A stretch of DNA of 34,845 nucleotides from IMG/VR virus record IMGVR_UViG_3300009181_000195, positions 1 through 34,845 of that record; one strand, given 5' to 3'. The DNA comes from a virus. The notes below the pieces were generated by a model. It made no database searches. It was not told the DNA's origin and was given only the letters and a program-made list of their open reading frames with translations. Made by a program: the position numbers and the translations under genes. This document shows positions 1 to 21,299 of the stretch, in pieces; the stretch's first letter is position 1; every line of letters starts with the position of its first letter.

Positions 1-116
1 AAAGGTCATAGTTGACATTTCGTCAGTTGTTTGTTTGCGCAGATTTAAAGAGCTCTAGCACATCTCTCTACGTGTGGTACTACCATTCTCATTGCAATCA
101 AGTCCATGGCATCCCC
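1..116 (-). ncRNA. ssrA: 5' half of a probable phage-encoded tmRNA (runs off the window)
   Basis: Read on the minus strand from 116 downward, the stretch opens with GGGGATG, the usual tmRNA acceptor-stem 5' strand. A D-arm-like GGACTTGATTG follows at 105-95, close to the tmRNA pattern GGnnUnGAnnG. An H-type pseudoknot like PK1 can be drawn: CACA at 76-73 pairs with TGTG at 62-59, and AGAGAG at 69-64 in the loop pairs with CTCTTT at 52-47. Eight bases later comes GCAAAC (38-33), the commonest start of a tmRNA tag frame. Read from that GCA the tag would be ANKQLTKCQL and a stop, which lacks the usual small hydrophobic end. Another frame, with GACGAA at 24-19, stays open to the window edge and would read DEMSTMTF and on. 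The 3' half (rest of the tag, later pseudoknots, T-arm, CCA end) is outside, so this is a strong resemblance and not proof. tmRNA rescues stalled ribosomes, and phage copies are known. Confidence 0.66.
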
Positions 117-124
117 ATATAATA

Positions 125-134
125 TGTAAATATA
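125..134 (-). promoter_or_regulatory. Promoter-like motif upstream of the tmRNA
   Basis: In the sense direction the sequence is TATATTTACA, one base off the TATATTTATA element found before many genes in this window. It ends 8 nt before the proposed 5' end of the tmRNA, the distance expected for a -10/-7 element. A TTTG lies about 20 nt further upstream, as in Bacteroidota -33 elements, but the region is AT-rich, so this could be chance. Confidence 0.45.
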
Positions 135-158
135 CGAATAATAATTTAGATTACCAAA

Positions 159-518
159 TTATTGTTTAGAAAATTGTAAAGTGTTTGGAAGATATGTATA
201 TAAATTACGCATAGTCAAACATCCTAATTTAATTGATTTTAAATTTGATTCCGAAATCTCATCATTAGTTCCATATATTCTCCACATTATAGTTACTGCT
301 ATATAAAATGGATTTTGTAAAAATGATGCATATTCATTTCTATCTATTTCAAAAATAGGTGCGCCATTATCATTTGATTTTTGTATAAAATATCTATCAA
401 TATATCCTTTTTTATAATCAATATCCTCTGGCATTGGTATAATTGTTTCAATTTTTTTATATTTAAACAAGTGTCCATTTTTAATTATACTATTATATCT
501 ATCTATTTTAATTGCCAT
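159..518 (-). CDS. Conserved-type hypothetical protein of the baseplate cluster, 119 aa
   Basis: This small soluble protein has no signal peptide, membrane segment or recognised catalytic motif. The middle (about residues 36-85) carries a tyrosine- and aromatic-rich pattern, with GYIDRYFIQK, then a FEID element and FYIAVTIMWRI. This pattern is familiar from small unnamed proteins next to baseplate genes in marine-type myophages, but I cannot give it a function. The ATG follows the hub stop codon by 13 nt, with no Shine-Dalgarno sequence, so it is probably the last protein gene of the tape-measure/baseplate operon. A minor baseplate or wedge component is the most economical guess. No terminator hairpin is visible between its stop and the tmRNA promoter region. 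Confidence 0.7.
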   Translation of the reverse strand: MAIKIDRYNSIIKNGHLFKYKKIETIIPMPEDIDYKKGYIDRYFIQKSNDNGAPIFEIDRNEYASFLQNPFYIAVTIMWRIYGTNDEISESNLKSIKLGCLTMRNLYTYLPNTLQFSKQ

Positions 519-16600: not shown

Positions 16601-19600
16601 CATCATTTCTTACTTCAAATGCTGCTCCTCCAGTACCAACACCACTTATAGCAAATCCTTCAGTTGCTCCACCACCAGTCCAAATAATATTTTTTAATGC
16701 CGCTCCTAAATTTGTTGTACTTGTTGTTGTTCTAAATCTAGCTCCCCATACATCCGGTTCACTATTAACAGAAATCAATGCGTTATTGGGAATATTTAAA
16801 GTAGATGTTAATGTTAATATACTAAATCTAGAAGTACTTGCAGGGTCAGCTAAGTAAGTACCATCATTATTATCAATAAATTGAGTTGCGTAAATAGCTC
16901 CCAATACAGTTGTATTTGCAGCTAATGTGTTATCAATTTCTTCAATTTTAAATCCTGCTATTTCAGCCTGTCCACTATATCCACTATATAGATAATTGTG
17001 TAACCAACCTAATTGCATGAATTTTGCATATCCATACCAAGTATACCCAGCACCAGATCCAGCTGGTCCAATTGTCATTGTATATTCCGTCCAAGACGCA
17101 GGTGGAACGCCATTCCAATAATAAGGTTGTCCCCAGCCACCATTATCAGGCTGTCCGTAATTGTAAGTTGCTTGCGTAAATGAAAGATAACAATATGGAT
17201 TACCAGACGTTGCTCTAATCCAAGCTGAAACTTTGTAAGTTTTAGTTGGGTCAATTGCTACCCATCCAGATTGTCTATGTCCACTCCACGCACCACTACC
17301 AGCAAATGCAACATCACCAATAGGTGCATCACTTAATCCACTTCTATATGTTGTATCGGGCCAAATAAATCCACCATCTGCTCCACTCCAGTTTCTAGTA
17401 AAATATTTACCATCCGGAACAAACATACCAAATAAAGATGAACCATTATTAGTCCTAGTTGAAATATTACCTCCAGTTTTTACAACAGATAATATTGATG
17501 TACTATTAGGGTCTAAATAATATGAATTATCACTATAATCATAATATCTCTGTGCGTACATATAACGATATGCTGTCATATCACCATTTGCCATATCCAT
17601 TCTTAACATTACAGTATTCGTACCACCACCAACATTATTTTCAATACCAGATGTTTGTGCTCTAGTAAAATCAATTGCGTTTATTGGATTGTTATGCCAA
17701 ATACCCCAAGGTGTAGATTCTTCTTTATAAATCCAAGGAGAGGCCTCACCACCACTACCAGGATTTCTAGAACGAAGGAATACAGGATATGTAGTTGAGT
17801 TAGTTGGTGTCATTGTAATACCTTCTGCAGAAGCACCACCATTCATAATAATATTTGAACCATTATTAGCAATAGTAACACTACTAGCAAAATACCCAGC
17901 ACCACTTTCGTTTACTGAAAATAATTCGTTTGTTGATTTTACTGCGTTATTACCTACTATGAATTTTCTATCAGTTTCATTATTATTAGAATCAATGCTA
18001 ACAACAACATTCCCAGCACCAGCCATATATAATGGGTTACCAGATGCATTATTTTGTAAAAGAACTACATCATATGTGTTATCTCTATATAAACCTGCCC
18101 CAGTATCAGATAGATAAAGTGCACCCCCATTAGCTCCCGTATTTACATATATTGGGCCTGATGACCTAAATGAGTTATCTGTTTGGTTAAATTGCCATTG
18201 AGAACCTGCAGCTGTTGCCGTTCCCATATGAATACCAATTGTATCTAAATTACTATATGCACCTGCTGTACCTTGGAAATAACTTATACCATATGCATCA
18301 GCGTTACCAAATCTCCAAATTGGATTTCTGACATTACTAGCATATGTTGTACTATAAAATCCAGATGTACCAGCCGCATATACTCCAGTTGTTGATATTA
18401 TTTGATTAAACGTTACATTATCTGATGTTCTAACATTTTGATTCATTAAATAAACCTCAGTTGCTCCTATACCAGTATCTATTGTACCAGTTATTACGAT
18501 ATTACCACTACCACCAATATTACCAGCTACATAAGTATCTGCATCATGATACCATCTCAATCCACTCTCATTCCAATAAAATTGTCTTGTAGCTTGAGTT
18601 CCTCTTTTAACTTCTATGCCAGCATTTTCAGTTGGTGTAGTTGCTGCCGTTATATCTGCATTTAATGTGATGATATTATCACCTACATTTAAAGTTGTTG
18701 TATTAATATATGTTGTTGTACCACTTACAGTAAGGTCACCACTAATTGTAGCGTTACCGGTTACTGCCAATGTAGTACCATCAAAAGTTAAGTTTGCATT
18801 TACATTTGCATTTGGTGCTCCACTTGCTGCTAATGTAATTACACCATTTGTAGTTGTGCCTGTCAATGATAATAATCCAGAAGAACCTGATGTACCACGT
18901 GTACCTGATGTGCCACTTGTACCACTACTTCCTGATGTGCCAGAAGAACCTGCCGTTCCACCACTACCACTTGTGCCAGAAGTTCCTGATGAGCCGCTTG
19001 TACCAGAAGTTCCTGATGAGCCATGTGTACCTGATGTGCCACTTGTACCACTACTTCCTGATGTGCCAGAAGAACCTGCCGTTCCACCACTACCACTTGT
19101 GCCAGAAGTTCCTGATGAACCGCTTGTACCAGAAGTTCCTGATGAGCCACTTGCTCCAGAAGTTCCTGATGAGCCACTTGTGCCACCACTACCAGAAGTT
19201 CCCGATGTTCCACTACTACCGCTCGTGCCAGATGTGCCACCACTTCCACTCGTGCCACTACTTCCACTCGTACCACTACTTCCAGCTGAACCGCTTACTC
19301 CGGATGTACCACTACTACCGCTTACACCAGAAGTTCCTGATGAGCCACTAGTCCCAGAAGTTCCTGATGAGCCACTTGCTCCAGATGTTCCACTACTACC
19401 ACTTGCTCCAGAAGTTCCTGATGAGCCACTAGTCCCAGAAGTTCCTGATGAACCTTGTACTCCACTTATTCCAGAAGTTCCTGACGTACCGCTTGTGCCA
19501 GATGAGCCAGCAGAACCAGAAGTTCCTCTTAATCCCGCTATACTAATTGTCCAAGATGATGCAGTTGTTGTACCTAAATTATAATCAGCTGCTATGGCAA

Positions 19601-21299
19601 ATGATGTACCACCTGTGATAGTTACAGTTCCTTCAAAATAGTTTGAAACAGTATTTACAGCTCTTACTCTAACTCCAGTTATAAATGCACCTTGCTGATT
19701 TGTTGTTAATGTTATTGTTCCAGTTGATGCCGGTGTTGCTGATGTAGTTGATGTTACATTACCATATCCAGCTCCAGTACTTCCCGATGTGCCAGATGTA
19801 CCAGCCGAACCGGATGAACCTTGTACTCCACTTATTCCTGATGTACCAGACGTTCCCGATGAGCCACCACTACCACTTGTTCCCGATGAGCCACCACTAC
19901 CACTTGTTCCCGAGGTACCACTTCCTCCACCTGCTCCACTTATACCAGATGAACCACTACTTCCTGATGAACCACTACTTCCCGATGTACCTGCACTACC
20001 AGAAGTTCCTGATGTGCCACTTGTTCCCGATGTTCCATTTGTACCACCACCTCCAGTTATACCACCACTACCAGCACTACCGCTTGTTCCAGAAGTTCCC
20101 GATGAGCCACTTGTTCCTGAAATTCCTGATGAACCACCAGTACCACTTATACCAGATGTACCTGCTGATGCATTTGTGCCAGAAGTACCTGCTGACCCAG
20201 AAGTACCTGCTGACCCAGAAGTTCCCGATGTGCCACTACTACCGCTTGTGCCAGAAGTTCCAGCTGAGCCCGTTGTACCACCACTACCAGAAGTTCCTGC
20301 TGAACCCGTTGTGCCAGATGAACCTGTTGAACCGCTTGTGCCAGATGTTCCTGATGTGCCAGAACTTCCACTAGTCCCGCTACTTCCGCTTGTTCCACTA
20401 GTCCCGCTACTTCCAGATGTTCCAGCTGACCCAGTTGTACCCGATGAACCTGTTGAACCAGAAGTTCCCGATGTACCAGCACTGCCAGTAGAGCCGGATG
20501 TACCACTACTTCCAGAAGTTCCTGATGTGCCACTACTACCGCTTGTTCCAGAAGTTCCAGAAGTTCCCGATGTGCCGGCTGAACCAGTTGTTCCCGATGT
20601 GCCAGAAGTTCCTGATGTACCAGACGTTGCTGCTGCTGTTTTAAAACCAATTTTACCAGTTGTAGAATTATAAACTAATACATCATTTGATAAATCGGGT
20701 GATAAAGAACCTACTCCGAATGATAATGAACCAGTAATTCCTACACTACCAGTAAATTCTTGCTTATCATTTTGTGCATCACCAAACTTTGATGAACCAC
20801 TTGCGTATATTATAGATGATGAAATATATGTTGTAAATAATTCTAATGTATTTATTTTTCCAGCTACATTTATATCACCTTTAAAAATACCACTACCAGT
20901 TACAATAAGATAATCTCTTATAGTTACTGAATTATTTATTTCCAATCCCCTATTTGGAGAAATTATTGCTGTTGCTGAACCCGATTTTAATCTATCTAAA
21001 TCACCAATAGATGCTGCGTTTATATTAAATAATCCACTACCATCACCTTTAAATAAAGATGCTGATATTGATGATGAAATATTAGCCGAGCCACTAATTT
21101 GTGTATTTGCTTTTATTTGTAATGAAGAACCACTAGTTACTCCAATTATATTTGTTTGTACTGCAGATGAAGTAAAATTTCCTACAACACTTACAGATTC
21201 AGATGAGGCATTTAAAATAGAAGAACCACTTACAAAAAGTGATATACTATTTACACTAGTCTGATTTAAACCATTTGGATTATTACCGTTAAACGCCAT
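13344..21299 (-). CDS. Giant collagen-like tail fibre with C-terminal S74 auto-processing chaperone, 2651 aa
   Basis: Domains in order: an N-terminal beta region (1-222) with SGS-rich strands and the ISSSIIYASGSSKFGD motif, also found in the 3393-aa fibre; a collagen-like Gly-X-Y block (about 223-508); a small beta domain (508-590); a second Gly-X-Y block (590-806); a shaft starting LSLTGTTTNGVITL with LNVGDNIITLNADIT; about eight modules ending in FYD-x-NNT-x-YY-x-DP (1250-2320); and a Peptidase_S74 domain. Ser2536 and Lys2541 in YSDARKKTN are the expected catalytic pair, with GLIAQE further on. Endosialidase-type chaperones cut themselves just before this Ser, so about 116 residues would be released after trimer folding. 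The C-terminus is coiled coil. The protein is probably a trimeric receptor-binding fibre. The modules between FYD repeats look like carbohydrate-binding sandwiches, but this is inferred. The ATG has an A-rich leader and lies 16 nt after the 110-aa gene. Confidence 0.9.
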   Translation of the reverse strand: MAFNGNNPNGLNQTSVNSISLFVSGSSILNASSESVSVVGNFTSSAVQTNIIGVTSGSSLQIKANTQISGSANISSSISASLFKGDGSGLFNINAASIGDLDRLKSGSATAIISPNRGLEINNSVTIRDYLIVTGSGIFKGDINVAGKINTLELFTTYISSSIIYASGSSKFGDAQNDKQEFTGSVGITGSLSFGVGSLSPDLSNDVLVYNSTTGKIGFKTAAATSGTSGTSGTSGTTGSAGTSGTSGTSGTSGSSGTSGTSGSSGTSGSTGSAGTSGTSGSTGSSGTTGSAGTSGSSGTSGTSGSSGTSGSSGTSGTSGTSGSTGSSGTTGSAGTSGSGGTTGSAGTSGTSGSSGTSGTSGSAGTSGSAGTSGTNASAGTSGISGTGGSSGISGTSGSSGTSGTSGSAGSGGITGGGGTNGTSGTSGTSGTSGSAGTSGSSGSSGSSGSSGISGAGGGSGTSGTSGSGGSSGTSGSGGSSGTSGTSGISGVQGSSGSAGTSGTSGSTGAGYGNVTSTTSATPASTGTITLTTNQQGAFITGVRVRAVNTVSNYFEGTVTITGGTSFAIAADYNLGTTTASSWTISIAGLRGTSGSAGSSGTSGTSGTSGISGVQGSSGTSGTSGSSGTSGASGSSGTSGASGSSGTSGTSGSSGTSGVSGSSGTSGVSGSAGSSGTSGSSGTSGSGGTSGTSGSSGTSGTSGSGGTSGSSGTSGASGSSGTSGTSGSSGTSGTSGSGGTAGSSGTSGSSGTSGTSGTHGSSGTSGTSGSSGTSGTSGSGGTAGSSGTSGSSGTSGTSGTRGTSGSSGLLSLTGTTTNGVITLAASGAPNANVNANLTFDGTTLAVTGNATISGDLTVSGTTTYINTTTLNVGDNIITLNADITAATTPTENAGIEVKRGTQATRQFYWNESGLRWYHDADTYVAGNIGGSGNIVITGTIDTGIGATEVYLMNQNVRTSDNVTFNQIISTTGVYAAGTSGFYSTTYASNVRNPIWRFGNADAYGISYFQGTAGAYSNLDTIGIHMGTATAAGSQWQFNQTDNSFRSSGPIYVNTGANGGALYLSDTGAGLYRDNTYDVVLLQNNASGNPLYMAGAGNVVVSIDSNNNETDRKFIVGNNAVKSTNELFSVNESGAGYFASSVTIANNGSNIIMNGGASAEGITMTPTNSTTYPVFLRSRNPGSGGEASPWIYKEESTPWGIWHNNPINAIDFTRAQTSGIENNVGGGTNTVMLRMDMANGDMTAYRYMYAQRYYDYSDNSYYLDPNSTSILSVVKTGGNISTRTNNGSSLFGMFVPDGKYFTRNWSGADGGFIWPDTTYRSGLSDAPIGDVAFAGSGAWSGHRQSGWVAIDPTKTYKVSAWIRATSGNPYCYLSFTQATYNYGQPDNGGWGQPYYWNGVPPASWTEYTMTIGPAGSGAGYTWYGYAKFMQLGWLHNYLYSGYSGQAEIAGFKIEEIDNTLAANTTVLGAIYATQFIDNNDGTYLADPASTSRFSILTLTSTLNIPNNALISVNSEPDVWGARFRTTTSTTNLGAALKNIIWTGGGATEGFAISGVGTGGAAFEVRNDGIVWVKSSLRTPAVYQDYWYDSGGTFIARTGSGSGTTRHINLSNSTTDPSQASTDSGITWGQRSDSQPYYMIHVRNYNNGYYSGNHLQLAWHTGVDIGAASQYGGTRFFNNSPFTGTEIGSFGKSDNYLRADYGVLAPRYYDISNTGYYFDGLDGTNLQYLNVNGNWGSNPFGSSHAQLVITGTYASIYQTSTNGNLGYMLQHIATDGAWYLYGGRGAVNGSSWDWSQRNYPNQDGSYVEFNTSARAPIFYDRNNTAYYVNPDGFSNFGQSNGQVVTITKTGSAPGNNSTMLVTNSYGNHSWGITGEFRIEANGGTDRPSILFSNGYDSNTWSCGYGYADSSYFRINHDHGHRNGSWGTTDFYVDRSGNSYSNGSSRAPIFYDQNNTAYWLDPNATFNLNLNGAGVTFTGDTSGIHVLNAEGVSSNVRVGAAWGRPGVYNNPYFCIGAESFIEFRIGNVQNGFVQSSYLEMAGSVRGPIFYDSNNTGFFVDPNGSSRTNEFLGYKVRGDTNGIYTDNSGWWTHDPYGQGWGKPHGSFRSLEVSTSGNFSTEPAMFRIHQWGSGSCEWYKPQGTTVYLRETPGGGGSWFTRHVIERYTENTESFRAPIFYDTNNTGYYIDPNGFTEIYGGLRMSGAHGNTTSRLRLLPGNNGAGTGLCQLQMWVSEPGNTWDWGGFGFNVDNTYHDGSGPYYFSRPNTSFGSSYFRFSTAGNLYLNTMNSSGSNWRVMEWYTGGTVYANDYLTGGNSLRAPIFYDSNNTAYYTDPTGYSQMSSGEFNNYVRVARIDFIGTGGNSGQGTNAYNIFQEGGGWSYPYPDLRIAYHTGIKLGANAGSYEGTRVYSDYDMSDLCIQLAGSSNYSFKYKWMYVADVGFYTGTNSAHWYPNNSTYGTWRMDGYKNSYTGILQDVGNTPVTGMFDTGGNGGCYYQSGRWMFYHYFPYNCTGVNTSSTSPSYGMYVSGGIYSTGNIVAYSDARKKTNIVTIESALEKILKLRGVYYNRIMDEAANITTEMAEKRQTGLIAQETVDIFPEVVTYDDVNDEFGISYGSFAGLFIEGFKEQNEIIKKQSEEIKELKEILNKLIFNNKE
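14300..17560 (-). repeat. Array of FYD-NNT-YY-DP modules in the 2651-aa fibre
   Basis: Eight copies of a boundary motif occur at about residues 1250, 1476, 1705, 1815, 1945, 2045, 2175 and 2320. The clearest read APIFYDRNNTAYYVNPDG, APIFYDQNNTAYWLDPNA and APIFYDSNNTAYYTDPTG. Modules between them are 100-230 residues and differ in sequence, so the motif is a conserved joint between variable units. The first three copies are degenerate (YYDYSDNSYYLDP, FIDNNDGTYLADP, YYDISNTGYYFDG). Confidence 0.85.
18880..19530 (-). repeat. Collagen-like Gly-X-Y coding repeat, block 2 of the 2651-aa fibre
   Basis: This is about 215 residues of near-perfect Gly-Thr/Ser-Ser/Ala triplets (GTSGSSGTSG type). The DNA is a degenerate 9-base tandem repeat. 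The segment GTSGSSGTSGTSGSGGTAG occurs twice. The block has no proline. Confidence 0.9.
19775..20630 (-). repeat. Collagen-like Gly-X-Y coding repeat, block 1 of the 2651-aa fibre
   Basis: This is about 285 residues of Gly-X-Y with Thr, Ser and Ala in X and Y, plus interruptions such as GISGVQGSSG near its end. The GISGVQGSSG unit also opens the second block, so the two blocks look like duplicates separated by a beta domain of about 80 residues. Confidence 0.9.

What the first reader, a model, noticed from the sequence alone, without database searches (positions are those of the whole stretch)
1..134. A phage-encoded tmRNA gene appears to begin at 116 and run off the window
The minus strand shows a GGGGATG acceptor strand, a D-arm-like GGACTTGATTG, an H-type pseudoknot (76-73 with 62-59, and 69-64 with 52-47) and GCAAAC eight bases after it. 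The promoter-like motif at 125-134 is placed as for a start at 116. The tag is open to question: the frame from GCA would end in CQL and stop, without the usual LAA/ALA end, whereas the frame with GACGAA remains open. If the short tag is real it would not be a normal ClpXP degron, and a phage could use it to change how stalled products are treated. tmRNA is known in some phages but rare.
Basis: partly seen in the sequence, partly recalled or inferred. Interest (0 to 1): 0.82.

Follow-up and report, generated by a model that had tools for sequence, protein, structure and literature searches.

The report
Phage tmRNA with long conserved tag
The end of this virus fragment holds the first third of a real ribosome-rescue RNA (tmRNA) gene; its complete relatives in many freshwater phages all encode an unusually long, well-conserved 23-25 amino-acid tag that we could not find in bacterial genomes or in named phages.

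Summary
In detail: window 116→1 (minus strand) is the 5' 116 nt of a genuine one-piece tmRNA that runs off the contig. A second contig, 100% identical to the window over 10.5 kb, continues 487 nt further and completes a 435-nt tmRNA (RF00023, 74.5 bits against a cut-off of 47). It has a 7-bp acceptor with the G3·U pair, a T-arm, pseudoknots and a tag frame ending in a stop. The GACGAA frame is right, and the tag is DEMSTMTFDSMMEFIGASEYAYAA, 24 aa with a degron-like end. One arm of the proposed pseudoknot is also mis-assigned.

Following the tag led to a family of at least 112 distinct full-length phage tmRNAs. Their backbones and acceptor stems differ widely, but the tag is under strong purifying selection (pN/pS 0.23 in frame, 1.5 and 1.9 out of frame). 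Two tag patterns found nothing in 84,980 bacterial and archaeal genomes, although that scan had no positive control. Near matches are also absent from 50,697 GenBank phage records.

Phage tmRNA as such is known. A long, conserved, apparently phage-restricted tag looks like a new variant. The host is probably a member of the Bacteroidota. No SmpB gene was found.

The parts
1..116 (-). 5' 116 nt of a one-piece tmRNA gene (acceptor 5' strand to tag codon 8); the gene runs off the contig and is completed on L029:603-169(-), 435 nt
   Evidence: RF00023 truncated hit at 116-1(-), E=0.0059; full gene on the 100%-identical contig L029, 74.5 bits
110..116 (-). acceptor stem 5' strand GGGGATG; pairs with CATCTCC on L029, including G3·U
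   Evidence: 15 covarying acceptor types in 112 relatives
95..105 (-). D-loop region GGACTTGATTG, matching the tmRNA consensus
   Evidence: Rfam alignment
49..69 (-). pseudoknot 1, stem 1: 69-66 (AGAG) with 52-49 (CTCT)
   Evidence: compensatory changes AGAC/GTCT and GGAG/CTCC, 100% of cells paired
36..62 (-). pseudoknot 1, stem 2: 62-58 (TGTGC) with 40-36 (GCGCA)
   Evidence: 86.7% of cells paired, one pair changed on both sides; rival arm 76-73/62-59 shows no compensatory change
1..24 (-). first 8 codons of the tag, GAC GAA ATG TCA ACT ATG ACC TTT = DEMSTMTF; full tag on L029 is DEMSTMTFDSMMEFIGASEYAYAA*
   Evidence: A at position -4 in 112/112
126..158 (-). Bacteroidota-type promoter-like sequence: TTTGG (158-154) and TATATTTAC (134-126)
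   Evidence: seen in sequence; the motif recurs upstream of many relatives; no transcription data
159..518 (-). 119-aa phage protein upstream of the tmRNA, conserved neighbour in relatives
   Evidence: 30 related loci

Best explanation
A large myovirus that probably infects Bacteroidota carries a functional tmRNA gene between its baseplate genes and a DNA-polymerase-like gene. The RNA is charged with alanine by the host (G3·U acceptor) and binds host SmpB and EF-Tu. It enters ribosomes stalled on broken mRNAs and makes them resume at GAC, four bases after a conserved A. It then adds a 24-residue tag. The last residues (YAYAA, YAVAA or YALAA) act as a Clp-type degron. The roughly 15 residues before them, conserved as protein across the family, are an extra recognition or engagement segment that sets the fate or speed of degradation during infection. 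Shown here: gene, structure, frame, conservation of the tag peptide. Inferred: charging, SmpB use, proteolysis, host, role of the extra segment.
For: Complete gene on a contig identical to the window. 140 of 145 tag-bearing loci with full flanks have a 7-bp acceptor and a 5-bp T-arm, against 0 of 725 shuffles and 10 of 725 random positions. 15 acceptor types and 21 T-arm types across 112 distinct genes, all with G3·U. Pseudoknot 1 covariation. Tag pN/pS 0.225 in frame against 1.51 and 1.89; 0.30 against about 1.0 and 1.8 over 8 middle codons not fixed by the search patterns. A at -4 in 112/112. Tag length 23-25 aa in 111 of 112. Sheath, tube and polymerase relatives point to Flavobacterium phage immuto and, for sheath and tube, Rhodothermus phage RM378. 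No Shine-Dalgarno sequences seen upstream of window genes.
Against: No expression or tagging data. The window holds only a third of the gene. The top named relative is annotated as a Microcystis phage, so the host is not certain. No SmpB was found in any contig searched, but all virus contigs may be fragments. The role of the extra tag segment has no direct evidence.
Confidence: 0.82

Rival explanations
1. A host tmRNA captured by the phage: the long tag is simply the normal tag of a bacterial lineage missing from the genome collections, and the phage adds nothing new.
For: The resume context AATAACT|G and the degron end resemble bacterial tmRNAs (own knowledge); phage tmRNAs elsewhere group with bacterial lineages (PMC9004378).
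Against: Two tag patterns had no match in 84,980 bacterial and archaeal genomes, although a very similar pattern for the C-terminal end finds at least 120 stretches in viral contigs. The tag is shared by very different tmRNA backbones.
Confidence: 0.12
2. The tmRNA is an integration remnant (attachment site) rather than a working gene.
For: tmRNA genes are common integration sites; many contigs, including the window, break inside or exactly at the end of the tmRNA.
Against: The gene is complete, the tag peptide and stems are under selection, and it lies between phage structural and polymerase genes. The breaks are explained by stretches of tmRNA shared among co-occurring strains, contigs ending about 120 nt into a shared block (inference).
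Confidence: 0.04
3. Chance resemblance: no tmRNA at the window end.
For: The truncated hit alone is only 11.8 bits.
Against: Full-length homolog on a 100%-identical contig, 74.5 bits.
Confidence: 0.01

Closest known systems
Phage-encoded one-piece tmRNAs (Streptomyces, Mycobacterium, Stenotrophomonas and Caulobacter phages)
   Same: tmRNA gene in a phage genome, with degron-like tag end where the tag is annotated
   Different: Annotated tags of Streptomyces phages are 11-13 aa, e.g. ANSNVASAYALAA; here 23-25 aa with a conserved [DAG]xE[LMK]S[TS]xT[FWY]... front segment. BLAST similarity is limited to a T-arm stretch of about 30-40 nt.
Melnitz and pelagimyophage tmRNA (PMC9004378)
   Same: Aquatic myophage carrying its own tmRNA
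   Different: Those are permuted two-piece tmRNAs related to Alphaproteobacteria; this one is one-piece
Mycobacterium phage DS6A tag-less tmRNA (cited in PMC11915505)
   Same: Phage tmRNA
   Different: DS6A RNA has no tag frame and inhibits host tmRNA; here a tag frame is present and conserved
Chryseobacterium phage MA9V-3 tmRNA (PMC13120357)
   Same: tmRNA in a phage of a Bacteroidota host
   Different: 359 nt; tag not compared here

Membership tests
tmRNA (Rfam RF00023, one-piece) | covariance score above gathering cut-off over the full model | tested here: met
   L029 74.5 bits and L003 95.2 bits against 47, model 1-374; the window alone is truncated, 11.8 bits
tmRNA (Rfam RF00023, one-piece) | alanine tRNA-like domain: 7-bp acceptor with G3·U, T-arm with TTCGA loop | tested here: met
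   112 distinct genes, 15 acceptor and 21 T-arm types, every acceptor 3' strand ends UCC
tmRNA (Rfam RF00023, one-piece) | pseudoknot 1 upstream of the tag | tested here: met
   stem 1 with compensatory changes at two pairs
tmRNA (Rfam RF00023, one-piece) | tag reading frame with stop, preceded by the conserved A (A86 equivalent) | tested here: met
   with PMC2481249 for the role of A86
tmRNA (Rfam RF00023, one-piece) | partner SmpB | tested here: inconclusive
   none in the virus contigs and phage records searched; host SmpB presumed
tmRNA (Rfam RF00023, one-piece) | tags proteins and rescues ribosomes | not testable with these tools
   needs experiment
canonical short ssrA tag (about 10 aa) | tag length near 10 aa | tested here: not met
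   23-25 aa in 111 of 112 genes; modal length 10 aa in PMC11915505

The most novel reading that the evidence does not exclude
The conserved front segment of the tag is a phage-specific signal: the phage replaces the host's rescue tag by one that sends stalled proteins to a fate it chooses (a particular adaptor or protease, or faster engagement), independent of the host's own tag.
Probability: 0.35. Interest if true: 0.75.

Novelty: new variant of a known kind. Interest (0 to 1): 0.55.

Why it matters
About 2% of phages carry a tmRNA (PMC9004378) and its role there is unsettled. A family in which the tag peptide is long, strongly conserved and apparently not found in bacteria gives a concrete handle: the tag itself appears to matter to the phage, beyond ribosome release. 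It also offers a new natural degron to test in Bacteroidota and a marker to trace these phages in metagenomes.

Tried and rejected
Whole-window ARAGORN and Rfam gathering scans and the own-record search miss the truncated gene. ARAGORN calls the tag DEMST... for several complete contigs but mis-calls others, such as VNKTELYLSAL for L015. A tRNA nested antisense in the enlarged third-pseudoknot region of L029 was considered from its GTTCGAAT-like hairpin; ARAGORN at default and Rfam on the sub-region gave nothing.

Full report
The window ends inside a tmRNA gene. On the minus strand, bases 116 to 1 match model positions 1-117 of Rfam RF00023 with the 3' end cut off (11.8 bits, E=0.0059). Whole-window scans do not see it because the gene is truncated. 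An exact search with the first 37 bases returned 37 viral contigs. One of them, L029/L039 (IMGVR_UViG_3300027754_000232), is 100% identical to the window from base 1 to at least 10,518 and continues 487 bases past base 1. It carries the whole gene, 435 nt, 74.5 bits against a gathering score of 47. Close relatives score 82.9-95.2 bits with genes of 385-386 nt.

The frame. GCA at 38-36 would give ANKQLTKCQL and a stop. ARAGORN and the full-length relatives instead read GAC GAA ATG TCA ACT ATG ACC TTT..., giving DEMSTMTFDSMMEFIGASEYAYAA*. In E. coli the base A86, four before the resume codon, is essential, while U85 tolerates C (PMC2481249). In the GAC frame, position -4 is A in 112 of 112 distinct relatives and -5 is T or C in 110. 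In the GCA frame position -4 is C. Substitutions in the tag among distinct sequences are mostly synonymous in this frame only: pN/pS 0.225, against 1.51 and 1.89 in the other frames. The result holds for eight middle codons that the search patterns fixed little or not at all: pN 0.175 and pS 0.581.

The structure. Stem 1 of pseudoknot 1 is 69-66 with 52-49 and shows compensatory A-U to G-C and G-C to C-G changes. Stem 2 is 62-58 with 40-36. The whole structure pairs in 92.6% of cells with 8 double-sided changes; no shuffle of 500 reached either value.

The family. Among tag-bearing loci with full flanks, 140 of 145 have a perfect 7-bp acceptor and 5-bp T-arm, against 0 of 725 shuffled and 10 of 725 random positions. 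Acceptor stems occur in 15 paired types and T-arms in 21; every acceptor keeps the G3·U pair that alanyl-tRNA synthetase recognises (established knowledge). The tags number 57 distinct strings and are 23-25 aa long in 111 of 112 genes when started at D, A or G. The front segment is conserved even in hits found only through the tag's end. The backbones differ strongly, so the tag is conserved beyond the RNA around it.

Restriction to phages. Two tag patterns gave no match in 84,980 bacterial and archaeal genomes. That scan could not be given a positive control, so this is strong but not final. Two tag variants had no tblastn match in 50,697 GenBank phage records, where a 24-aa control query found its source at E=5e-9; one tag variant had none in plasmids. 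Of 18,146 phage genomes examined by others, 402 (given as 2.3%) carried a tmRNA (PMC9004378). The 2025 tmRNA database lists 79 distinct phage sequences and a modal tag length of 10 aa (PMC11915505).

Setting and host. The window is a tail and baseplate module. The tmRNA lies between the 119-aa protein gene and, in L042, a gene with a DNA-polymerase match. Named relatives of sheath, tube and polymerase are Microcystis phage Mel-JY01, huge phage LR756508 and Flavobacterium phage immuto; Rhodothermus phage RM378 appears for sheath and tube. No Shine-Dalgarno motif is evident before the window's genes, and a TTTGG...TATATTTR element precedes many of the tmRNAs. This resembles Bacteroidota promoters (own knowledge) and makes such a host likely but not proven. 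SmpB was not found in any contig or record searched, so host SmpB is presumed.

Mechanism. Most likely the RNA is charged and delivered by host factors, frees ribosomes stalled on cut mRNAs during infection, and adds a tag whose end (YAYAA, YAVAA, YALAA) is recognised by a Clp protease. The conserved front segment is unexplained by that role alone. It may bind an adaptor or improve engagement; this step is inference. Four of 22 large tag-bearing contigs also encode a ClpP-like protein.

Verdict. The finding is real and better than stated: not a short odd tag, but a long conserved one. Phage tmRNA is a known kind; the tag family makes it a new variant.

Noticed in passing
L157/L185 (IMGVR_UViG_3300008267_010201): A tmRNA of the family whose tag reads DEMSTMTFDDLMAFVGADYE and stops, lacking the AxAA degron end.
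   Followed up: no
L169:1501-1612 (LR756508.1, 484-kb phage): A 112-nt tmRNA-like hit, 58.2 bits, far too short to hold a tag, in a phage that also has a full tmRNA (L167); may be comparable to the tag-less tmRNA of phage DS6A.
   Followed up: partly
L167:1501-1947 (LR756508.1): Full-length tmRNA whose frame after ATAACT reads GVNNADYESAGFTAEDFAQMDGESLYHGSERKPAAV, about 36 aa, a different and even longer possible tag (read by eye).
   Followed up: no
L143/G042 151500-152000 and L147/G054 19430-19912: ClpP-like genes within a few kb of the tmRNA in these two phage contigs; 4 of 22 large contigs have one.
   Followed up: partly
immediately upstream of many relatives, e.g. L091, L105, L151: A conserved AGTTCTTTAA(CATAT) sequence directly before the tmRNA 5' end, similar to a boxA antitermination element.
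   Followed up: no
L029:225-420: The region between tag and 3' domain is a different, larger module than in the nearest relatives (435 against 385-386 nt), suggesting that third-pseudoknot modules are swapped.
   Followed up: partly
window base 1 and ends of L001, L004-L006, L008, L009, L012, L013, L016-L018, L025, L030, L031, L036, L037: Many independent contigs break 70-125 nt into the tmRNA or at its exact 3' end, probably because tmRNA stretches are shared among co-occurring strains.
   Followed up: partly
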